NCBI GenBank assembly: GCA_038093975.1
Contig: JBBPTG010000193.1
Coordinates: forward strand, 1 to 46,537
Direction of reading: 5' to 3'
Length of the DNA stretch: 46,537 nt
Source of the DNA: Chalciporus piperatus
Lineage: Eukaryota; Basidiomycota; Agaricomycetes; Boletales; Boletaceae
Shown here: in pieces, positions 6,187 to 41,646 of the stretch
How positions within the stretch are numbered: the first letter of the stretch is position 1
Layout of the letters: every line of letters begins with the position of its first letter
Notes under the pieces: generated by a model
The model's input: only the letters and a program-made list of their open reading frames with translations
Told to the model about the DNA's origin: nothing
Database searches by the model: none
Program-made: the position numbers and the translations under genes

Positions 6187-6434
6187 ATCCCTATTCTCTA
6201 TGGGCCGAACCCTGATGCAGGCAGGACTGGGTGATTAGCACCAGTCGGCCAGGTCCTACCTCATGGAACCTTTGTGTTGGCCATTCCCATTGCCAGGGCA
6301 CAATGGTACATTGGCTGATCCCTACTCTATGTGTACATTCTATTACTAGCCGATCCCTAACCTAGGTGATCATACACCAGCGGCCAATCGTTAGCCGGCC
6401 AGTAGAGCACGGCCTAATTGGTGATCGGCTGGCC
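6187..6434 (-). repeat. Inverted repeat, right arm
   Basis: This is the reverse complement of 2596-2843, with about four mismatches. It continues outward for 32 further bases to 6466 as a sequence also found, in the opposite orientation, at 46411-46442. Confidence 0.9.
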
Positions 6435-6520
6435 TTGCTGTACGGCCTAACGAGCTGAATGGGCTCCAGTTGAAAAGAGTCCAAGCATCTCGTGTGAATA
6501 CTTCACAGTACCTCCCGTAC

Positions 6521-7051
6521 ATGTCGCAGGATTTCGAGAAACATCAGAAACTGTACGACGATCTGAGCGCCGCGTTCAAGGACGTTTTCATGTGGATTGA
6601 AGAAGTGGTAAGTCTTGGAAGTCTTCACATTGGGCGGAAGAGTGCTGGAACTAGCTTTCACATGCGCGTTCATTTACCTGCAGAGTACCAGGCAATGGTG
6701 CAGGTCCTCGACTCACTACCTGGTCAGCCGGGCAGTCTGGTGGTGCCCTTTCCCTCATTCGTTCTCAACATCAATGTATGTACCCAGGGCCATCGCGATG
6801 TCGGCGACAAGAATCTTTGCGCGGTATTGGTCATAGGACAATTCCAGGGTGGGGCGCTGGCCCTTCGTGAGCCCGGGTTAGTGATCGAGATGGGCAATGG
6901 CGACTGGGCTGCTTTCCAGTCAGACGGGACAACACACTACAATCTTCATTACAACGGCACCTGGGCTTCCTTTGTATTACAGAGTGACAGGGCGTTCAAT
7001 CGTTGGTTAGAAAGGGAGAATGGTTGGGGTCCAAACGAGTTTTTCCATTAG
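6521..7051 (+). CDS. TET/JBP-like Fe(II)/2-oxoglutarate dioxygenase, possibly 5'-truncated or inactive
   Basis: The reading frame is open from at least 6452, inside the end of the repeat element. The first ATG, 6521, gives 176 residues. Residues 81-95 read VLNINVCTQGHRDVG and supply the HxD iron ligands (His91, Asp93). FQGGALALREPGLV (108-121) and GDWAAFQSDGTTHYNLH (127-143) follow, with His139 as the likely distal ligand. This order of blocks is what I know from the TET/JBP-type oxygenases that agaricomycetes have expanded; in animals such enzymes oxidise 5-methylcytosine. Family members usually carry an arginine for 2-oxoglutarate about 8-11 residues after the distal histidine. Here that position appears to be Trp148 (NGTWASF), so activity is doubtful. 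A GTAAGT at 6610 is a possible intron donor, but the frame continues through it. The gene begins where the element ends, so an upstream exon may have been lost. A different DSBH oxygenase is the alternative. Confidence 0.6.
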   Translation: MSQDFEKHQKLYDDLSAAFKDVFMWIEEVVSLGSLHIGRKSAGTSFHMRVHLPAEYQAMVQVLDSLPGQPGSLVVPFPSFVLNINVCTQGHRDVGDKNLCAVLVIGQFQGGALALREPGLVIEMGNGDWAAFQSDGTTHYNLHYNGTWASFVLQSDRAFNRWLERENGWGPNEFFH

Positions 7052-22746: not shown

Positions 22747-25700
22747 TTACAGACCCATGTGAATGAAGGGGATCCAGGCTATAGCCGGAACCTTTTCTCG
22801 ACGCAGACGTTGCACTGCATCATGCAATGCTCGTGCAGCCTCCCTATAGTCCGGATGTACACCCTCCTTGACAAGTTGCTCATACACATCCTTGGCCAAC
22901 CGAGGCGCAATGCTATCCCCGATGAACCACATCGTTCCAATCACGCCGCCATAGCCCGCAAACAGCATCCCTGCAGAAAGGTGGACGGCCTCTTCGGAGA
23001 GTTCTGTGTCGCCAGTCGCTGTCTCGCATGCAGAGAGAAAGGCGAGTCCGCTGCGAGGACGTGATAGATCAATAATTGTCGACAGCGTTAGACGCTGGCG
23101 ACCTGCGAGGCAAAGTCCACTGTTGGTAGGATTCACAGGGTCTTGGACACCATGACAAGCAAAATGGACCCAGTCCGAGTCTTTCATCTCTTTCAAAACT
23201 TCATCGACGATTCCATTGGACTTGAGGAGAGTGACACGCGGGGAAGACAACCTTCCGATCACCTTCGAGATGTTGTCTATTTCCTCAGGCACGTATTGGA
23301 GTCGATTTTGCCCGTCGGAGCTTGGTTGAGGAACTGCAAGAAGACGGAGTTTTCTCGAGGACAGGTCCAGCTGAGAGGGTAAGCCAAGGACGCCGAGTGT
23401 TGGGGTATATGAGGAAATGGCGAACTCGAGAAGATTGTTCCCTGGCTCGGGTGAACTGTAAATACCCGCCGCGTGGATTGGAAGGAATGCAAAAGGTCCA
23501 GTAGGGCACCAGAAGATGCGCGGCAATTTTTCAGTAGTAGTCTGCACGTATAAAAGGAATCAGGGATGTCAGCTAAAGTATATCGAGCAGCGCATATTCA
23601 TGTACACGTACCGAATATCCAATGTCATCTAGAACTGGTTTAACCACTTTGATCCACAGTTCCGACAAGATGTAATTGAAATCGGGCCGGAGTCTTCTCG
23701 CACCTCGAGGAGCGATATCATCCTCCCCGGACTCGGAATCGACGACACGACCATCTTTCGCACGAATCTTGTCCATTAACGAATCTTGCAGGTATTTGGC
23801 GTGTTCGTAATCGATTTCTGACAGCCGGATGTGCACGGGTTGATTCGAGTCAGACTTGACAGCCAACGCGTCGCATCCCAGCACGCTGGCGTTGATGAGA
23901 ACAACGGGCCCGGAGTGGGCGCAAGCTCGGAGTCGAGTGAATGTTTCTGGGAGTAGAAATCGCTTGAAACCGGGTTTTGACTGAATTTCCTCAAGAAGCT
24001 TCTCGCGTTCGACGGTGAGTGCACGATGTCGGCGGGCCTGTTTCTCCAATGACTCCTCTAGATAATGTTGTCCCTCACTGAATAGGAAAGTGGACTTGTC
24101 ATGGGCAGAGCTAGCATGCTCCAGCTGATTCGACAATCGCTCGAGTCGTTCAGCAAGGTCAGAATGGACAGATCGCAGTTCATCAAGTGGGGTGCGGAGC
24201 CGGAACAACTGGCCCCACACGACTGAGCGTCCTTGCTCAAGCCACTCGACAGCTTTTGCAAGATGACCAAGCGTCACAGCCGTAGAAGCTGCGTCCCGCG
24301 CTAGATCTGTGCAGGATTGAAGCCACCGATAGCGGTCCTTCAGGGGAAAACCAATCCATGCAAGCTGTGGGAGAAGGGCGATAGCAAGTGAATATGCGTC
24401 AAGGAGTGACTTGTCACCCAGCTGTCGAGCGCACTGGATCCAATAAGTGGATGCCCGAAAGCGAACGTACGAGATTCCGATCGACGAAGAAGCTGCATGG
24501 GAGAAATGCTGGATGGCTGTGTGAAGGGCAGAGTGGTCACTTTGGTGCTCGAACCGCTGAACAAAGCAGTACCCAAGGTTGGTGAGCCACGTAGAGTGGT
24601 CTAGATGATCAGCTGGCGTGATTTGCACAGCTCGCTCAACTGTGGAGATGGACTTGTTGAGGTCATCGAGCTCCCGGAGGCGCTCGAAACGTGTCAACAA
24701 GGACATCCCGAGATTGTTGAGCCTGCCAGGCAGGTCTGGATGGTGGTCTGGTGTAGCTTGAACAGCTTCTTCCAGAACCGAAACTGCCCTGTGAAGGTCC
24801 TCAATGGCACCATGTTTCTTGAACTGCATCAACAGCGAGTTCCCCAGGATATTGAGCCATCTTGCCTTCTCTGGATGTTCCTTCGGTGCGAGTTGCACAG
24901 CTGCCTCTGCCACGCGAACCGAGTCTTCGAGGTCAGTGGGCCTTTCATGATGCTCGAAACGTCCGTACAATGCTGCCCCGAGTGCGCTCAGTACTCCAGG
25001 CCTATCGGTATGATCAGCCGGGATGAGTTTCATGGCCTCATCCAGCTTCTTGACTGATCTGTCAAGGTCTGCGAGGTCCCCGAGGTATTCGAAGCGTGTG
25101 CGGAACGAATTTCCGAGGTTGCTGAGCCGATGAAGCTTGCTAGTATGGTCGTCCGGAGTGACGCGCAAGGCCTCCTCTATGTTTGCAATGGACTGGTCGA
25201 GGTCTGTAATGTTGCCACATCGCTCGAAACGTGTCAGCAATGCGACGCCAAGATTGTCAACCCAAGCAGGTTTGTCAGGTTCGTCGTCCGACGTGTTCTG
25301 AACAGCTTCCACCATCACCGTAATCGACTTGTCAAGGTCCGGGATGGTGTCGAATTGCTGGAAGCGTGCCAGCAATGCACTTCCAAGTTTGCTGAGCCTT
25401 CCAGATCGATCGGAATGGTCTTTCGGTGTGGCTTCCACTCCTTCCTCCTTCATCGTGACTGCTCTGTCGAGGTCTGCAATATTGCCACAACGCTTGAAGC
25501 GTGCAAGCAAGTAATCCCCGGAGTTACTGAGCCACCTCGCCCTATCCGGATGGTCCTTCGGCACGATCTTCACGGCCTCGTCCAGGACGGACACCGACCT
25601 GTCGAGGTCCTCAATGCTATTGAGTTGCTGAAAGCGGAGAAATAACGACCCCCCGAGGATGCTCAGCACTGCAGGCCTATTGGGATGACCGCATGGTGAG

Positions 25701-27305
25701 GCCTGCAGGGCGGCCTCTGCTACGGTGACCGACTCTTTGAGATCTGCTTGGTTTCCGAGTCGCTGGAAACGTGTCGACAACGAGCTCCCATGGGCGCTCA
25801 ATGCCTGGACCCTATTAGGATGACCCTCCGGCGTGAGTTCTACGGCCGACCCCGTCAGCTCAACCGACTGATTGAGATCTTCAACGTCGCCGAGTCGAAG
25901 GAATCGTTGCAGTGATGTGCTTCCAAACATAATGAGAAGCCAGGATTTACTGGAGTGGTCATCCGGTGTGAGTCGCACAGCTTCATCGAGCAGTGAGATC
26001 AACTGGTTGAGGTCGGCGATGTCTCCGGATCGCTGAGAGCGCTCGTAAAGGACGGCGCTGGCTATCATCCACTGGTGCCCGAGGTCAAGATCAGCTGCCT
26101 CGTTGTCACTGGAAGGAGTGGCCTCTTCTGCTTGATCGTTTGCTTCATCTTCCAGAGCTAAGCATGCCTCGAGTACGAAATCGGCATATCCACGCTCAAG
26201 GCTGTCGATGGGGCACAAGCCCTGGACTTGGGCAGCAAGATCTCTGGCTTCATCAGCGTCGCATATATTCCTCCCTTTCTTGAAGCGAACGGCGAGAACG
26301 CGAGAAAGGTTCAATAACGTCGCAATGCGATCTGGATGGCCGTTGCCTCGGAGAGTGAGTGCTTCCCGGAACAAGGAAATGGGCTCGTCAAGTTCGGTGG
26401 GTGCAACATCGGCACTACAAGCAGTGAATTTGGCTCTAGCCAAATTGAACAAGACAGCAGCTCGACAGGGATGATCTAGCGGACAGAGCTGGAGAGCGCG
26501 TTCGAAGTGATCTAGGGCGCTCGCTAGATCCTCTGCCCTGTCATGCTCGTTGTATTGGCAGAGGTAACTGTGCCCTTGATCGGTCAATTCGGCTAGAGTA
26601 CCATCGTGGACCCAATCAGACTATGGTACAGTGAGCCACGAGAGAGTGGATTCACAGTTGGACAATGCACTCACGTTATCGATCTGATGAGAAATGGTTG
26701 CAGAACCGTCCAAACGCCGGCGTTCCACTTTGACCAGAAGCGACGAACAGGGGGAAAGGGTTTCACCTTCATCACAGAAAGTGAAAGCTATACTCATGCG
26801 GTGAGAGACAGTGAAAACTCAGTGGCCTACTCACGGGTGGCGCTTTCGCTGCTGCTGAACAATTCTCCTACACCGACTTCGATGATCCGGAGGGTCTCTC
26901 CATTTCCTAGCATCGGCACGAATTCGAAGGACGCACAGACCGTAAGATGGATTCTTGAAGACGTCTCAGGCGGACTACTAATTGTTTAAGTCGCGGAGCA
27001 AAAAGAACGAAGAATGCATACAGAATAATTTCCTCGTCCCATTCAACGATGTCGCGTTCTACGAGGACTGGCTTATTTGATGTTTTCCACTTTCGACAAT
27101 CAGACTGCACCACCACACAAAATCCGACGGGAATTCGCCCGAGGCCCCGCGCGACGTCGTGAGCTCGGATATCTGATCAATGACATGACACCTTTCATTG
27201 TGTTGAGCGAAGCGGCTACCTACGTGTAATGACAAACGCCACACTGGCAGGCTCCAATTGGGACGGTAATGCCTCGGCCTCAGGGTGAGAGTGGGACTGG
27301 CTCAT
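22747..27305 (-). CDS. C2-TPR-CHAT domain protein (caspase-like peptidase fold)
   Basis: Six exons: 27305-27224, 27172-27022, 26977-26835, 26787-26675, 26620-23612, 23541-22747. All phases agree; 1430 residues. Residues about 20-150 form a C2-like beta domain, with IPVGFCVVVQSDCRKWKTS, VEWDEEIIL and IHLTVCASFEF. Residues 170-850 contain about eleven ~44-residue TPR-like repeats with the recurring pattern DLDxSIxxxEEAVxxTPxDHPDR…LxNLGxxLxxRF. A coiled region and WLEQGRSVVWGQLFRL follow, then the C-terminal CHAT domain with the catalytic His1296 (VHFACHG) and Cys1338 (LSACETA). CHAT proteins of this layout are abundant in agaricomycetes and are suspected of roles in programmed death or self/non-self recognition. 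In bacteria TPR-CHAT peptidases are known partners of gasdermins and CRISPR effectors. No gasdermin-like partner is visible in this window. Both catalytic residues are present, so it may be active. Confidence 0.88.
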
Positions 27306-29175: not shown

Positions 29176-32100
29176 ATGCTATATCGCTCAACGCTTCTCC
29201 TTCTGAGCACAATATTGTGTGCCACACAGATTGCTCTTGGTCTAGGGACTTCTTGCACTGCTGCTCTCGGGGGTGGGACCGCTGCTCCCACCGATCCGTA
29301 TTGGCTCGAGAGTATCCAGCACCAAGGAACGTCCCCATTCAATCCCGCAGGAAGTTCATATGTCGTTTTTCGCAATGTCAAAGATTATGGAGCCAAAGGT
29401 GATGGCGTCACTGATGACACGGCTGCCATAAAGTAGGCACTAACGTCAGAACCCCGCGTCTCGCTGATGTTTTATAGTTCGGCTATGTCATCCGGCAATC
29501 GTTGCGGTGGGGGATCTTGCGGGTCATCGACGTATGTGGCCGCTCTGTGAATTGCGTCAAACCACTCAGCTTGTAACAGTGTCTCTCCTGCAATCGTGTA
29601 TTTCCCTCAGGGGTGGGTTCAATCAAATCGACCAGTTTTTATCGGACACTGACCCATAATTAGCACTTATCTGGTCTCGTCCTCCATCAATACCTACTAC
29701 TATACCCAAATGATCGGAGATGCCAAGAATCCCCCGACTCTTCTCGCTAAGTCAACGTTCAGTGGCCTCGCGGTGATTGGTTAGTTCTTTCCATTTGATT
29801 ATTTCTCTATGTATCTAACGCCAACGTGGGATAGACGCGGACCCTTACATTCCTAACGGCGGTGGTTCGCAATGGTTTGTTAACCAAGACAACTTGTGCG
29901 GATATTCACCTCCCGCTTGTCTCTGATCCTGAGACTTAATCCCATTTAGCTTCCGTTCCGTCAGGAACTTGGTCATTGATTTGAGGCAAGTTCCGTCCGG
30001 GAATTCGGTGAATGGTTTGCACTGGCAGCTATCTCAGGCGACTTCTTTGGTTAATGTGCTGGTTGAGATGTCCACCGCTTCTGGAACCAATCACGTTGGT
30101 AAGGAAAAAATGTGTGGCGTTTGTTGCTGTACTGATTTTTGCGAAAGGCTTGTTCATAGAGAACGGAAGGTAAGTTCCCATTCTAGCCGAATGGCAAGGA
30201 CGATGGTGACGTAGTTTGTCAATTCCTTTTTAGTGGCGGTTTCATGGGAGGTAAGCAGACATATTAATTAATAAAGGTTGGTACACTAATTCGATGCTCA
30301 TTTGCTGCCAGATATCGTCTTCAACGGAGGTAATCTATGAGTCGTAACGAACCGAGAACAGCGCTGAACCTCGATTCAGGAAAGATAGGTATCGAGGTCG
30401 GAAACCAACAATTCACTGTTCGTAACTTGACCGTCAACAATGCGGTTACTGGTAAGCAAAGCTAACTCACGATCATGTCAAATACCGATCAATCCTGATA
30501 TCGGTCCTCAGCCGTCTCCGCTCTCTGGAATTGGGGTTCGTCGTCGTCCATGAAGTTAATATGGCTTAACTGAGTTTTTCCCCTAGGTTTCACGTTCCAG
30601 GGTCTTACTATCAACAGCTGCCAGGTACCTTGAGCGAGCTAGCCAGCGAAAATAAGTGTCTAATGTCCTTCGCAGGTCGGCTTCCACGTGTCAGTTGGTG
30701 GAAATACCCAATCGAATCAGGTATGACATCCCTCCATCACCTTGCTGTCTTACTCACTGGCGTCTTCAGGGTGTCGGTTCTGAAGCCATCATCGATGCTG
30801 TCGTGACGAATACACCCATTTTTGTGCAATCATCTGCCGCAAGCAACGGGGCCCTTCCATACTCGCTAGTTCTCAACAACATCAAGTTAACTAACGTTCC
30901 GATCGCGGTCGGCGTCGCTGGTGGAGCAACCATTCTTGCAGGGGGTACGACCACGATCGCCTCGTGGGGTCAAGGCAACATATACTCTGGAACTTCCGGT
31001 CAGAAGACTTGGGTGCAGGGTAACATCGCAGGACCCAACAAACCCTCCGTTCTCCTCGACAGCTCTGGCAGGATCTTTGGCAAGACTCACCCTCAATACG
31101 CAAACTATGCTACAAGTCAGATCGTTAGTGTCAAAAGTGTGGGAGCGAAGGGTGACGGGAAGACGGACGACACGGCGGCTATCCAGAACGTGTTCAACCA
31201 GGTATGGTTTGCATACATATCACCGCTGGGGTAGCTCCCTGAGTCTGGTTTCTGTATAGTATGCCGGGTGCAAGATCATCTTTTTCGATGCTGGGGTTTA
31301 TTATGTCACAAGCACCATAAATATTCCCGCTGGAACTCAAATTGTTGGAGAGGCATGGTCGGTCATCCTCGCTGGCGGAAGCAACTTCCAAAACCAGAAT
31401 AGTCCGACCGTGGTCATACGAGCAGGTGCAGCTGGCTCGACAGGAGTCCTGGAGATAAGCGATATGTTGTTCACGACCGCTGGGCCGAGTGAATAGTTGT
31501 TCTGACTCGTCTTTGAGGCCATGCTGACAAATGACCTTAGCTCCCGGTGCAATCTTGATTGAATGGAACGTACATGATCCCTCTGGCCAGCAAGGTGCGG
31601 CAGGTCTCTGGGACAGTCACCTACGGTGAGTTATTTGGTGCTTTATACGTGTAGCTGTGTTGAAACCGCGCTCGACAGGCTTGGAGGAGGTTCGTGTCGT
31701 AATGTTTCGCAGTTCAGCACCTCTAAAGACCATCTAGCTGCGGGTACAAACATGCAAAGCTCTCAATGTCCGTCGGGTTCCGTGAACGCCAACTGCCAGG
31801 CTGTGTTCTTGAGCATCCACCTTACGTCAGGGTCTAGTGCATACTTTGAGGTTTGTGCAATCTCTTGACTCAGCTTGTGGTGCATGTTTTCAAGAATGAT
31901 CAGGGTACCTGGGTTTGGACTGCGGACCATGATCTTGACGGCGGTCCTCAGACATCGATCTTCACCGGTCGCGGTATTCTGTCTGAGTCCGCTGGACCGG
32001 TTTGGTTGATTGGCACTTGTGAGTACATTGCAGCGTCACCCTGTATGACGCTAATCGTGATATCCTCGTAGCTTGTACGTTCATTGTTGCCTTCCGATGC

Positions 32101-32751
32101 GAGTCGTCACAATTGATATTCTTTCAGCGGAACACGCTGCTCTCTACCAATACAACTTGGCGGGCGCTCAAAACCACTACATCGGTTTTGCTCAGACGGA
32201 GACTGTGAGTGATTTATGAATATGGTCTAATACAGCCAGGGCTCATGGATTGATTTCGACAGCCTTACTACCAGCCTAGCCCCGCTCCACCTTCGCCGTT
32301 CAGCATCAATCCTACTTACCATGATCCTAGCTTCTCAGGCTCTAACATGGCATGGGCGATGAACATCCAATCTTCATCAAACATCATCCTCTTTGGTGAG
32401 CAGAGCAACTCCGCCCACTCTTCCCGTTCTGTTTTGCTGACTCGCTCTCTTATATCAGGTGGCGGGTTCTACAGTTTTTTCCAGGTCCGTCATACCATCT
32501 CTCGTCATTTCTGACGAGTCCGAGTCTGATATTGATTGCGTTTACAGAATTATGGCCAGTCGTGCCTCAGCAGCAACACGTGTCAATCACAAATCTTCAA
32601 CATAGACTCTGCGTCAGCGCCTAGCGTATCTGTATACAGTCTCTCCACTATTGGGACGACTTGGCAGCTCAGCGTGAATCAAGCTGGTGTCATCAACGAG
32701 AGTGGAAACGGGGATGGGCTCCAGGAAACGCTGACTGCCTGGCATAATTGA
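29176..32751 (+). CDS. Secreted GH55 exo/endo-beta-1,3-glucanase, copy 1
   Basis: 24 exons: 29176-29432, 29478-29531, 29580-29612, 29664-29779, 29835-29895, 29950-30098, 30148-30169, 30234-30250, 30312-30329, 30380-30451, 30512-30535, 30587-30624, 30676-30720, 30770-31201, 31260-31488, 31541-31625, 31679-31689, 31738-31850, 31904-32018, 32072-32074, 32128-32204, 32263-32395, 32459-32484, 32548-32751. All phases join to 777 residues. A signal peptide covers about residues 1-22 (TLLLLSTILCATQIALG). Two pectate-lyase-like beta-helix domains each open with the same motif (DYGAKGDGVTDDTAAI, residues about 69-84, and VGAKGDGKTDDTAAIQN), the hallmark of GH55. Glu633 in the SSEH block is a candidate active-site acid by family analogy. 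The enzyme should cleave beta-1,3-glucan in cell walls, its own or another fungus's. Intact, and paired with copy 2 in tandem. Confidence 0.93.
32072..32074 (+). other. Putative 3-nt microexon of GH55 copy 1
   Basis: TAG|CTT|GTACGT: a 3-base exon between a 53-base intron (32019-32071) and another 53-base intron (32075-32127). Both introns have normal GT and AG ends. The neighbouring phases give TSSEH with the microexon and TSEH without it. The same arrangement occurs in copy 2 at 38585-38587. Confidence 0.6.
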
Positions 32752-35682: not shown

Positions 35683-38600
35683 ATGTGGTATCGCTCATCG
35701 TTGTTGCTTCTGAGTACAGTCCTATGCACTTCCCAAATTGCTTTTGGTCTCGGCTCGTCATGCTCAGCTCCTCTAGGTAGTGGGTCCGCGGCACCCACGG
35801 ATCCATATTGGCTCGAGACTATCCAACACCAAGGAACATCTCCGTTCAATCCAAATTCAGGTTCCTATCAGGTATTCCGCAATGTCAAAGACTTCGGAGC
35901 CAAGGGTGATGGTGTTACTGATGATACCGCAGCAATCAAGTGAGTCTGTTGCTCATTTCTCATCTTTAGTCTGAGCTGATGTTCGTAGTTCTGCTATGTC
36001 ATCAGGAAGTCGCTGCGGCGGAGGATCTTGTGCATCATCGACGTATGTGCCTAGCCTTCATGCAGCTTCCCAGACTAAGGTTTTTTCTTCAGTCTTACTC
36101 CAGCAATCGTTTATTTCCCTGGAGGGTGAGCTTCCAGTCGGTTTTTCAAACAATAGCTCACGTTGTCCAATGATCAGCACTTACCTCGTCACGTCGCCAA
36201 TCAATACCTACTATTATACCCAAATGATTGGAGACGCCAAGAACCCGCCGACCCTTCTCGCAAGCTCTAATTTCAACGGATTTGCTGTCATTGGTCGGTC
36301 TCTTCTGATCTCATCATTCCCCCGGATCTAACCTTCGACAGACTCGGACCCATACATTCCCAATGGTTGGGGCGCTCAGTGGTTCACTAATCAAGACAAC
36401 TTGTACGCATTTTATCCCCTGTCTCGCCATTTTCGTTCGTTTCCCATGGGCTGAGACGCGGTCCATATGTAGCTTCCGTTCTGCGAGGAACTTAATCATC
36501 GATTTGCGGCAGATTCCGTCTGGAAATTCGGCGATTGGTTTGCACTGGCAAGTAGCTCAGGCGACGTCATTAGTCAACATTGTGGTCGAGATGTCGACTG
36601 CTTCCGGAACCAATCATCAAGGTACGAAGAAGTCTCCGGTTGTATCTGAGATTGTTAATCATGACTGTCAGGGATATTCATGGAGAATGGAAGGTGAGCG
36701 TACTTCACAGGTTTGTTGTCAGAGTCTTGGTAATCCGCCTTCGTCTCTCAGCGGTGGCTTCATGGGAGGTAAGCTAACTTGACATGCGCTTAAAATCAGA
36801 GATGCTCATCTCTTGCAGACATCGTGTTTAACGGAGGTAATCAATAACTCTGGTCGTGCAGATACACGAACTAACAATTCTCCAGGAAAGATTGGCATTC
36901 AAGTCGGAAACCAACAATTCACGGTTCGCAACTTGACCGTCAACAATGCTAACACTGGTGAGTGAAGTCCCGATCAAAGCGTATCAATGCTCATCTATGC
37001 TACATAGCTGTATCGGGAATCTGGAACTGGGGTCTGTCTTTGTATAAGTGATTACATTGGGCGTCTTGTCTAACGTTACCTCAAGGCTTTACGTTTCAGG
37101 GTGTTACGATTAATAACTGCCAGGTACTGGTTCGAGTACACTAGGTTGATGCAGGGAGGCTTAATGTCCTTCTACAGGTTGGGTTTGACTTGACGATTGG
37201 TGGAACCACAGAATCCAATCAGGTATTTTATATGTTCTTAGATACATTCCTCCTATACTCACCACGCAATTACAGGGTGTTGGTTCTGAGGCCATCATTG
37301 ACGCTCTCGTTACCAACACGCCAATCTTCGTACGGTCATCTTCCGCAAGCAACGGGGCGCTTCCGTACTCGCTAGTTCTCAACAACATCAAGCTGAACAA
37401 TGTTCCAACCGCCGTCGGCGTTGTCGGCGGTGCTACCGTCCTCGCAGGTGGAACGACCACCATTGCCTCATGGGGACAAGGCCACGTGTACTCCGGTACC
37501 GGAGGTCAGAAGACTTGGGTACAGGGTAACATCGTATCTGCAAACAAGCCCTCCGTTCTCCTCGACAGCTCGGGCAGGATATTTGGCAGGGCTCACCCTC
37601 AATACGCAAATTATGCTACAAGCCAGATCGTCAGTGTCAAAGGTCACGGAGCGAAGGGTGACGGCAGAACGGATGATACGGCGGCTATCCAGAACGTGTT
37701 CAACCAGGTATGGTTCGCATACATATCGCCGCTGGGTTAGTTCCCTGACTCTGGTTTTTGCATAGTATTCCGGGTGCAAGATCATTTTTTTCGATGCTGG
37801 GGTTTATTATGTCACAAACACCATAAACATTCCCGCTGGATCCCAAATTGTTGGCGAGGCATGGTCGGTTATCTTGGCAGGCGGAAGCAACTTCCAAGAC
37901 CAGAACAACCCACGCGTCGTCATCCAAGCCGGTGCTCCTAACTCTCAGGGTATACTGGAGATCAGTGATATGCTCCTTTCCACTGCAGGACCAAGTGGGT
38001 AGTGTCCCGACTGATTGTTGGACCTGACTGAAGCTGATCCGTCGCAGCTCCCGGTGCTATCTTGCTAGAGTGGAACGTACACGACCCCTCTGGTCAGCAA
38101 GGCGCTGCCGGCCTTTGGGACACTCATATTCGGTACGTTATCTAACGCCGACGATGTTTTTCGCTGACCCTGTGGTTGGTAGACTTGGAGGAGGTCTGTG
38201 CTGTGCTCCTTTGCAGATACGATCGCTAACGTGGAATGCGTCTAGCTGTGGGTACTAACATGCAAACCTCAGCGTGCCCCTCTGGATCTGTGAACGCTGC
38301 ATGCCAAGCAGCTTTCTTGGGAATCCACCTGACTAAAGGATCCAGTGCTTACTTCGAGGTGCGTGACATTTCTGACTCGCCGCTGGACCATGTATTCAGC
38401 TATGTTTCAGGGAACTTGGGTTTGGACTGCAGACCATGATCTGGACGCAACCGGCTCTCCTCAGATATCGATCTTTACTGGCCGTGGTATCCTTTCGGAG
38501 TCTGCAGGCCCTGTTTGGCTCATTGGAACATGTAAGTGAATAGAAAATTCATTCCACATGTTACTGACAGTGTTTTTGTCGCAGCATGTACGTGTTGTGA

Positions 38601-39256
38601 TGCATCTTGACTAAACGCCAAGAATAATTGGTCTTTGATGATAGCGGAACACGCAGCTCTCTACCAAATTAATTTGGTGAACGCCCAGAACCACTATATC
38701 GGTTTCGCTCAGACAGAGACAGTAGGTTATCTCTGACTATTCCAACATCACTGGCGTTGATGTTGTACCCTTTCCTTAGCCATACTACCAGCCTGTCCCT
38801 GCCGCTCCGTCTCCGTACAGCAGCAGCTCTACCTATCATGATCCCACTTTTTCCAGCAGCATCAACACCGCATGGGCCATGTACGTCCAGTCGTCGTCGA
38901 ACATCATCATCTTTGGTGAGCGGTGTGACATGTCATTGGCGGCTATCTCTAACGAATCGACTTTGGGTATCAGGTGCTGGCTTCTACAACTTCTTCCAAG
39001 TGAGTCGTGTGTCAACACGCTTTCCGCGTACATTCGTTCTCACTGGCGCGCATTTCAGAACTATGACCAAACCTGCCTCAACTCCAACGTGTGTCAAACA
39101 CAGATCTTCAATATCGACTCGGCATCAAGCGTGACAGTCTACAGCCTATCCACGGTCGGTTCGACGTACCAGCTCAGCGTGAACCAGAACGGCGTCGTGG
39201 ATCAGGGCGATAATGCTGATGGGTTCCAGTCCACTCTGACGGCCTGGAGCAAATGA
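35683..39256 (+). CDS. Secreted GH55 exo/endo-beta-1,3-glucanase, copy 2
   Basis: 24 exons with the same order and almost the same lengths as copy 1: 35683-35939, 35989-36042, 36093-36125, 36178-36293, 36342-36402, 36473-36621, 36672-36693, 36752-36768, 36819-36836, 36886-36957, 37008-37031, 37086-37123, 37178-37222, 37276-37707, 37766-37994, 38048-38132, 38182-38192, 38246-38358, 38411-38531, 38585-38587, 38645-38721, 38780-38915, 38974-38999, 39059-39256. 778 residues, all phases closed. Signal peptide LLLLSTVLCTSQIAFG, both GAKGDG(V/R)TDDTAAI openers and the SSEH block are present. Exons differ from copy 1 only by +6 (exon 19), +3 (exon 22) and -6 (last). The intron positions are all conserved while intron sequences have diverged, so the tandem duplication is not very recent. 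Intact. Confidence 0.93.
38585..38587 (+). other. Putative 3-nt microexon of GH55 copy 2
   Basis: CAG|CAT|GTACGT, flanked by introns of 53 (38532-38584) and 57 (38588-38644) bases. It occupies the same place as the microexon in copy 1 and again restores TSSEH in the protein. Confidence 0.6.
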
Positions 39257-40030: not shown

Positions 40031-41646
40031 TTACTCGCAGATAACGGCCCATCCCTCGTACTCGTCTCTCCCCTCCTGGATAGCAAGAAATTTCTCCCTT
40101 AGTGCCTTTCCGACAGGCTTGAGCGGTTCTTCGTGGTCAGGCACACGAATTTCTCGTCCCTCGAACCCAATCTTATCGACGGAGACGACAATCGCGGCTG
40201 TGCCAACGCAAAGTACCTCTGCGAGTTTGGCCTCCTCGGACCATCGCTCAAGGTCGTACATCGTGAACGTCCGCTCAGCAGGGTGCAGGCGCAACGAGAC
40301 GGACTCCTGGAAAGCACGGTCCGCCGCGAGAGCGAGACACGATTCTCGTGTTACACCAGGGAGAATTGTGCCATCCAACGGGGAAGTGATGAAATCGAAA
40401 CCTGTCGAGATTGGTTAGCCATCCCCCCCCTCTCTATTAGGTGCAAGATCACCCACCGTCTCCATCGTCCCGCTTGAGGACTGCGAATACATTCATTGCG
40501 CCAGCCTCGGTGATACGCTTCTCTGGGCCGAAAAGCCAGAGAACCTGATCGTATCCCTTTTCTGCTGCGATTTTCTGTGGCACGAAACCGGGCGAGTAGT
40601 TGCCCCCGACTTTGTGACCACCCGTTCCACCAGGCCATGCTCGCACATTCTCGATGATTGCGGCCAAAGCGATAGGGCGTGGGTCTGGGAAGAATGGTCC
40701 ACTGGGTGAACCGAGAACGTAGAGCATAGCGCTGTCAGATGCTACCACACCCAAGCCTAAGGAGAGCGTTCCAGCACCATCAGCGTCGTGGATCACAATA
40801 CAGGATAGTTGGACGTGCCTGGACGCGTTCCGATGATCGTCGGTCGAAGATAAAGGCTGTGACCGTTTAGGGTAGGGATCCATCGCTTCTCTGTCATGAC
40901 GAAGCGCTTGACAAGCTCTAGCACGGCGTCCCCGTCTACGGGCTACGATACCGATGAGGTTGAAAAACACGGTGCAGTTATATGCAAGCAATACTCACAG
41001 GGAGGGAGAGACGCGCGACGGAGCGCTCCAGGCGACGCATGTTGAGGTCAGGGCGGAACAGCCTGACTTTGCCATCGGGGCCGAGATAAGCCTGAGTGTT
41101 TCGTGGATGCTCAACATTAGCCGTTTTTAAAGGAGGGGTCATCTATCGCTCACCTTCATACCCTCGAAACAGTTGGTGGAATATTGGAAACAAGACGAGG
41201 CAGGGTCAAGGGAGATAGGCCCGTGAGGCTTGATTTCTGGGTCCGACCATCCCGAAGCAGGATGGAACGTCGAGACAGCCATGTGGTCACTGAATGTCTA
41301 TCGTCGATGAGGGGGGAACCGAGGAGGGGACGTTGATCAGCATGCTGGTATGAACGATTGAGATAAAGTGTGCGCTTACCGCCCCAAATTTGAGGGCTTC
41401 AGGGGCTGGGAGGGGTTTTGGTGCATCGGTCAACGTGACTTTCAATTTTGAGATCTATGGGCTTGTATAAGTTTTCTCCTCGTCGATCATAAGATCATTG
41501 GGGGATCCGGAGACATTGGGTGTGTTGGGGGGGAAACCTGCAGGATACGCGGAGACACTCACGTCGAGACGAGTAGGCTCTACGTCGGGCTCCGCACTCC
41601 CATTCGTTTTGTAGGGGGTATCCCCATTAGTTTTCCCAATCGCCAT
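40031..41646 (-). CDS. Branched-chain amino acid aminotransferase
   Basis: Seven exons: 41646-41563, 41454-41380, 41297-41154, 41091-40999, 40942-40819, 40756-40457, 40401-40031; 396 residues, the normal length for fungal BCATs. It is a PLP enzyme of fold type IV that interconverts leucine, isoleucine and valine with their 2-oxo acids. Landmarks are ALKFGATFSDHM, QYSTNCFEGMK, LNMRRLERSVARL, GTRPGLGV, the PLP lysine Lys222 in GGHKVGGNYSPG, EKRITEAGAMN and the C-terminal VCVGTAAIV-like block (LCVGTAAIVVSVDKIG). The N-terminus (MAIGKTNGDTPYKTNG) is not an obvious mitochondrial presequence, so a cytosolic enzyme (BAT2-like) is more likely. Intron 5 (40757-40818) uses a GC donor; that choice alone restores GTRPGLGV in phase. 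Gene intact. Confidence 0.93.

What the first reader, a model, noticed from the sequence alone, without database searches (positions are those of the whole stretch)
32019..32127. A 3-nucleotide microexon conserved in both GH55 paralogues
In copy 1 (32072-32074, CTT) and copy 2 (38585-38587, CAT) a three-base exon lies between two introns of ordinary size (53/53 and 53/57 bases), each with good GT and AG ends; the donor after it is GTACGT in both. Including it gives TSSEH just before a conserved glutamate near the presumed active site, and matches the usual GH55 spacing (GTASEH-type). Without it one would need single introns of 109 and 113 bases, unlike all the others in these genes. Microexons this small are rare and almost always missed by gene finders.
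Basis: partly seen in the sequence, partly recalled or inferred. Interest (0 to 1): 0.75.

Follow-up and report, generated by a model that had tools for sequence, protein, structure and literature searches.

The report
Three-base exon in fungal glucanase genes
Two neighbouring fungal genes for a glucan-digesting enzyme each carry a coding exon only three bases long beside active-site positions; relatives appear to share it, and many public gene models seem to have dropped it or garbled the site.

Summary
In both tandem GH55 exo-beta-1,3-glucanase genes a 3-base exon (32072-32074 CTT; 38585-38587 CAT) sits between introns of 53/53 and 53/57 bases, followed by donor GTACGT. A third GH55 gene of the same genome (contig C61) has it too (CGA, again GTACGT). 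The other 62 introns in my three hand-made models are 45-70 bases; skipping would need introns of 109, 113 and 110. Inclusion gives ungapped alignment with three solved GH55 enzymes. Of 242 listed homologues, 19 of 19 unnamed lgn/jgi proteins keep the residue (11 on contigs without room for the introns); of 222 named models 129 keep it, 73 lack exactly one residue and 20 are garbled. So: a real, probably constitutive microexon, apparently widespread in Agaricomycetes and often mis-annotated. Refinements: the adjacent Glu is the proton-relay/subsite -1 Glu, not the general acid; 'almost always missed' is too strong. No RNA of this species, and no genomic DNA of relatives, could be read.

The parts
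29176..32751 (+). GH55 gene copy 1, 24 exons, 777 aa
   Evidence: gene model
31904..32018 (+). copy 1 exon 19 (115 bases), ends GGC ACT T
32019..32071 (+). copy 1 intron 19, 53 bases, GTGAGT...CTCGTAG
32072..32074 (+). copy 1 exon 20, the 3-base microexon CTT (bases 2-3 of one Ser codon, base 1 of the next)
32075..32127 (+). copy 1 intron 20, 53 bases, GTACGT...TTTCAG
32128..32204 (+). copy 1 exon 21 (77 bases), starts CG GAA CAC (end of Ser, Glu, His)
35683..39256 (+). GH55 gene copy 2, 24 exons, 778 aa
   Evidence: gene model; match to 3eqn over residues 22-777
38411..38531 (+). copy 2 exon 19 (121 bases)
38532..38584 (+). copy 2 intron 19, 53 bases, GTAAGT...GTCGCAG
38585..38587 (+). copy 2 exon 20, the 3-base microexon CAT
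38588..38644 (+). copy 2 intron 20, 57 bases, GTACGT...GATGATAG
38645..38721 (+). copy 2 exon 21 (77 bases)

Best explanation
A genuine, constitutively included 3-nucleotide microexon in basidiomycete GH55 exo-beta-1,3-glucanase genes. Two ordinary short GT-AG introns (52-57 bases), both in phase 1, lie three bases apart; each is probably recognised as a unit across the intron (intron definition) and they are removed one after the other, so that whichever goes first gives the other a normal exon neighbour. The three bases restore one residue just before an active-site Glu-His pair (proton relay and subsite -1); skipping would keep the frame but delete that residue, probably harming the enzyme. 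Shown: sequence, open gene models, the third paralogue, protein spacing in relatives. Inferred: inclusion in RNA of this species, order and mode of splicing, constitutive use, effect of skipping.
For: Sites and frame. 3 of 3 GH55 genes found in this genome carry a 3-base exon followed by GTACGT, although copies 1 and 2 are only 49-68% alike in 22 of 23 introns. The other 62 introns are 45-70 bases. Ungapped match to 3eqn GTASEH, 5m5z GTSSEH and 8jhh ALGSEH. 19 of 19 lgn/jgi proteins keep the spacing; 11 of them lie on contigs without room for the introns; named models: 129 of 222. Scanning all positions with enough rows, this site has the largest excess of length differences in named models over lgn/jgi proteins (41.4% against 0 of 19; next 34.1% against 7.1%). 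An lgn protein and a Suillus model align over 777 residues with one single gap, this residue. The 73 minus-one models keep only Ala (46) or Ser (27), never Gly, as skipping predicts, while 28 of 129 full models have Gly (Fisher p 2e-6). 5 garbled models fit reading the microexon and on into intron 20, and 10 fit, by a looser rule, reading into intron 19. Full versus not-full changes at least 42 times on a tree of 234 rows.
Against: No RNA of this species. That lgn/jgi proteins come from transcripts is inferred from contig room: clear for 11, borderline for P0213, untested for the 7 on long contigs. Genomic DNA of relatives could not be read, so genomes with full spacing may have no introns there. 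Rows are related, so the Fisher values overstate. Other sites also show some excess of length differences (position 337: 18.2% against 0 of 12; position 90). The third gene allows another AG-N3-GT (TAC), though its sites score -4.5/-2.0 against 6.5/5.9. 5 of 20 garbled models fit neither reading-through class, and the classes were drawn after seeing the rows.
Confidence: 0.9

Rival explanations
1. No microexon: one intron of 109/113/110 bases is removed and the proteins really read TSEH (TVEH in the third gene); the AG-N3-GT is a chance pair.
For: GT-AG ends are legal and the frame stays open; 73 of 222 named models have exactly this spacing.
Against: None of the 62 other introns exceeds 70 bases; 19 of 19 lgn/jgi proteins and the three solved enzymes aligned over the site have the extra residue; the not-full state is scattered on the tree (at least 42 changes); in Lentinula edodes Q401R8 is full and the genome model P0135 is minus one, though P0135 has other gaps too.
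Confidence: 0.03
2. Both forms are made: the microexon is a cassette that is sometimes skipped, switching the enzyme by one residue.
For: Skipping is frame-neutral and would fall next to active-site residues; a regulated microexon is described in Trichoderma Xlr2 (PMC11121469, abstract and passages).
Against: 0 of 19 lgn/jgi proteins show the short form; they are representatives clustered at 90% identity, so minor forms could be hidden.
Confidence: 0.06
3. A nested or recursive intron (stwintron-like): the 109-113 bases leave in two steps and the three bases are lost too.
For: Two splice-site pairs lie in one composite intron.
Against: Both introns have complete donors and acceptors, so no splice site is interrupted; loss of the three bases would give the spacing that 0 of 19 lgn/jgi proteins have.
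Confidence: 0.01

Closest known systems
Small plant microexons of 1-15 nt, often missed in annotation (PMC8831610; abstract and passages)
   Same: Conserved, coding, mostly included, frequently absent from genome annotation.
   Different: Plants, found with RNA-seq; the word fungi occurs 0 times in that text. Here the case rests on genomic sequence and proteins.
Phanerochaete chrysosporium P450 microexons (PMC1184071; passages)
   Same: Basidiomycete genes with 45-55 bp introns and very small exons.
   Different: Shortest exon there is 6 bp; the passages seen do not speak of GH55.
Trichoderma virens Xlr2 microexon (PMC11121469; abstract and passages)
   Same: A microexon in a fungal gene concerned with polysaccharide use; its abstract says functional microexons had not been described in filamentous fungi.
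   Different: A regulated switch in a transcription factor; ours shows no sign of a switch and lies in an enzyme.
3-nt exons of animals: mouse Ncam, Drosophila troponin T (named in passages of PMC8042270)
   Same: An exon of exactly three bases; in troponin T it adds one residue.
   Different: Described there as differential or tissue-specific; no sign of that here.
PcLam55A (3eqn), CtLam55 (5m5z), MnLam55A (8jhh)
   Same: The enzyme family, with the same spacing at the SEH motif.
   Different: Protein level only; the intron structure of their genes was not seen.

Membership tests
GH55 beta-1,3-glucanase | Full-length homology to the two-domain GH55 enzymes | tested here: met
   Copy 2 residues 22-777 align to 3eqn 6-756, 1053.8 bits (copies 1 and 3 not run); PF12708 over its cut-off at exons of all three genes
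GH55 beta-1,3-glucanase | General acid Glu with Tyr three residues on, and the Glu-His pair of subsite -1 | tested here: met
   QTETPYY in all three translations; the Glu-His after the microexon aligns with 591-592 of 8jhh; roles from PMC10637969 passages
GH55 beta-1,3-glucanase | Hydrolysis of beta-1,3-glucan | not testable with these tools
   No assay
Microexon | Very small internal exon (15 nt or less) between complete GT-AG introns | tested here: met
   3 nt; donors and acceptors within the score range of the other introns
Microexon | Included in mature RNA of this species | not testable with these tools
   No RNA held for this genome
Microexon | Included in mature RNA of relatives | tested here: inconclusive
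   11 of 11 proteins on contigs without room for introns have the residue, but transcript origin is inferred and their genomic DNA was not seen
Microexon | Conserved in homologous genes | tested here: met
   3 of 3 GH55 genes found in this genome
Stwintron | An inner intron interrupts a splice site of an outer intron (definition recalled) | tested here: not met
   Both introns are complete and three bases apart

The most novel reading that the evidence does not exclude
An Agaricomycete-wide 3-base microexon kept beside catalytic residues because its splicing itself is useful: sequential removal of two introns three bases apart is a slow step that limits or times production of a glucan-digesting enzyme, or yields a dead one-residue-short form when splicing is hurried.
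Probability: 0.08. Interest if true: 0.75.

Novelty: new member of a known kind. Interest (0 to 1): 0.55.

Why it matters
If right, about four in ten of the named GH55 models sampled (93 of 222) look wrong at a site next to active-site residues, which matters to anyone ordering synthetic genes or modelling these enzymes. It also gives a fungal exon of three bases, shared by three genes of one genome, on which to test how a spliceosome handles two introns too close to be bound at once. The error signature (exactly one residue missing, only Ala or Ser kept, or intron read-through) could be used to look for other missed microexons in fungal gene catalogues.

Tried and rejected
Other inner exons in the composite introns: 7- and 14-base ones shift the frame; 9- and 12-base ones in copy 2 have weak donors (-3.7, 0.5); the alternative TAC in the third gene has weak sites. 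I considered an origin by tandem duplication of the last three bases of exon 19 plus an intron, because exon 19 ends in CTT before CTT in copy 1 and in CAT before CAT in copy 2; the third gene (CTG before CGA) does not show it. My first assumption that the SEH Glu is the general acid was dropped. Length variation at the junctions after exons 12, 13 and 17 is also present in the lgn/jgi proteins (2 of 14, 3 of 14, 5 of 16) and was taken as natural; after exon 2 named models differ in 26.6% and lgn/jgi in 1 of 12, a possible second error site not followed. One garbled model (P0032) first passed as full by length; it was moved to the garbled class, while the Fisher values still count it as full. 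The pattern search was uninformative. Structure prediction was not run, as solved relatives exist.

Confidence was lowered from 0.94 to 0.90 for the first of these and because the odds of the readings had summed to more than 1; the cassette rival went from 0.08 to 0.06 for the second reason.

Literature: ten searches of the held open-access library. In the listings shown (searches show 20 of 39, 20 of 64 and 12 of 19) I saw no paper about a GH55 microexon or a 3-nt exon in a fungal enzyme gene; most listed papers were not opened. Passages in PMC4014442 and PMC3990503 speak only of read-mapper settings; PMC12590764 passages were of no use here; a 3-bp exon 2 named in passing for Ganoderma gpd (PMC8379801, passage) may mean three bases of a longer exon. 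Subscription papers (the PcLam55A and Lentinula exg2 gene papers, recalled, not seen) may already show it.

Full report
The window lies on contig C193 of an unnamed 35.5-Mb genome in 484 contigs. The rows nearest to copy 2 on the tree are models from Hydnomerulius, Imleria and Boletus; that these are Boletales is recalled. The organism itself was not named.

Observation. At 32072-32074 (CTT) and 38585-38587 (CAT) three bases lie between an AG and a GTACGT; the flanking introns are 53/53 and 53/57 bases. I built gene models by hand from splice sites, frame and comparison of the two copies: 24 exons each, the same phase at every junction, 777 and 778 residues. Both also contain exons of 11, 17, 18, 22, 24 and 26 bases, so very small exons are normal here and the 3-base one is the extreme. 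Hand-made models favour short introns to some degree; the frame and the 3eqn alignment check them.

A third gene. Searches of the genome with the protein and with PF12708 found one more GH55 gene, on contig C61 (only best candidates are scored, so more distant ones could be missed). Its model (23 exons, one intron fewer) has the same 3-base exon, CGA, between introns of 52 and 55 bases, again followed by GTACGT. It reads GTAMEH; skipping would give GTVEH. Among the 22 intron positions shared by all three genes this is the only one with the same donor hexamer in all; GTACGT occurs at 1 of the 62 other introns. Copies 1 and 2 are 49-68% identical in 22 of 23 introns and 67-91% in exons, the microexon itself being the lowest at 2 of 3; its one changed base is a silent third codon position.

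Chance. The other 62 introns run from 45 to 70 bases; a single intron would be 109, 113 or 110. Shuffled composite introns contain an AG-N3-GT with two introns of 45-70 bases in 4.7, 7.4 and 3.0% of 20,000 draws each, and with GTACGT in 0.025, 0.010 and 0.020%. The hexamer was noticed first and the genes are related, so this is a guide. All twelve splice sites score within the range of the other introns.

Protein evidence. With the microexon the copy 2 protein aligns without a gap across the site to 3eqn (GTASEH), 5m5z (GTSSEH) and 8jhh (ALGSEH), the three of eight listed chains that cover it. In 8jhh SEH is at 590-592 and the later E..Y at 614 and 617, so the numbers agree with MnLam55A in PMC10637969, where Glu-591 and His-592 are proton-relay and subsite -1 residues and Glu-614 with Tyr-617 the general acid and its helper (passages). 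The microexon supplies the last two bases of the codon two before that Glu and the first base of the next codon.

Relatives. Three protein searches listed the best 120 of 1445, 1309 and 2165 hits, 242 distinct proteins in all. I read the length of the stretch around the site in each. Nineteen have only the source tags lgn or jgi (what the tags mean is not stated by the tool). For 12 of them on contigs of 1.4-3.4 kb I compared the room left beside the coding sequence with the introns that copy 2 has in the same span: 11 have clearly too little room (107-589 bases against 550-1237), so they are most likely from transcripts; P0213 is borderline (1113 against 1237); 7 are on longer contigs and cannot be judged. 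All 19 have the full spacing. Of 222 named models (all except those 19 and Q401R8) 129 have it, 73 lack exactly one residue and 20 are garbled. Counting P0032 as full, 19/19 against 130/222 has Fisher p 9e-5, and the 12 against 130/222 p 0.004; related rows make these optimistic.

Controls. Over all positions with more than 150 named and at least 12 lgn/jgi rows, the microexon site has the largest excess of length differences in named models (41.4% against 0 of 19). The next are position 90 (34.1 against 7.1%), 574 (56.1 against 36.8%) and 337 (18.2% against 0 of 12), so other annotation errors exist but are smaller. Close pairs agree: P0008 (lgn) and the Suillus model P0013 align over 777 residues, 736 identical, with one single gap, which is this residue; P0126 (jgi) is 97% identical to a Rhodocollybia model that has seven extra residues at the site. 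In Lentinula edodes the database protein Q401R8, which has no contig (that it is from cDNA is recalled), has GTASEH and the genome model P0135 GTAEH, but P0135 has two other gaps and breaks off early in the alignment, so it is not a clean witness. Some close pairs are full in both, as P0186 and the Mycena model P0184.

Error forensics. If a model skips a 3-base exon of phase 1 here, the residue left is base 1 of the first codon plus bases 2-3 of the second; with Ser or Ala second this can give Ser or Ala but not Gly. The 73 minus-one models keep Ala (46) or Ser (27), while 28 of 129 full models have Gly first (p 2e-6). Of 20 garbled models, 5 fit reading the microexon and on into intron 20 (Cys from T|GT), 10 fit by a looser rule reading into intron 19 (Gly from G|GT), and 5 fit neither. 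Three of the ten (P0173, P0182, P0195, Lentinula) share a similar three-residue addition and might be something else. The five place an NNT|GT at the right spot in genomes of Rhizopogon, Collybiopsis, Rhodocollybia, Taiwanofungus and Wolfiporia, though only through protein letters, and the classes were drawn after looking at the rows. On a FastTree tree of 234 rows (231 of the 242 proteins, those of 600-900 aa, plus the three genes here; the site's columns left out) full versus not-full changes at least 42 times; 63 of 231 inner branches are weak.

Mechanism. Short fungal introns are thought to be recognised across the intron (recalled). A donor-bound U1 and acceptor-bound factors should not both fit on three bases, so the two introns are probably removed in sequence; after either is gone the other has normal neighbours. 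This is inference. Constitutive use is suggested by 0 short forms in 19, but minor forms could be hidden by clustering. That skipping harms the enzyme is inferred from position.

Verdict. It is a new member of a known kind, present in three genes here and, by protein evidence, apparently in Boletales, Agaricales and Polyporales (orders recalled from genus names). The claim that such exons are almost always missed is too strong for this one: 93 of 222 named models look wrong at the site.

Noticed in passing
G000:C61:82199-85708 (-), L031: Third GH55 gene of this genome, 23 exons, with the same 3-base exon (CGA at C61:82878-82880).
   Followed up: yes
31202-31259 and 37708-37765: Intron 14 is 88% identical between the two copies, against 49-68% for the other 22 introns; possibly a gene-conversion tract or a functional element.
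   Followed up: no
31679-31689 and 38183-38193: An 11-base exon (exon 17) present in all three GH55 genes, with more exons of 17, 18, 22, 24 and 26 bases.
   Followed up: partly
32016-32018/32072-32074 and 38529-38531/38585-38587: The last three bases of exon 19 equal the microexon in copies 1 and 2 (CTT/CTT, CAT/CAT) but not in the third gene (CTG/CGA).
   Followed up: partly
exon 2/3 junction, 29531-29580 and 36042-36093: Named models differ in length here in 26.6% of 173 against 1 of 12 lgn/jgi proteins; a possible second site of annotation error.
   Followed up: no
22747-26620 (-): Neighbouring open frames with tetratricopeptide repeats and a CHAT domain.
   Followed up: no
40031-40994 (-): Open frames matching parts of branched-chain amino acid aminotransferase, below the families' cut-offs, downstream of copy 2.
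   Followed up: no
6425-7051 (+): Weak, below cut-off match to the Tet/JBP oxygenase domain (E 1.3e-4).
   Followed up: no
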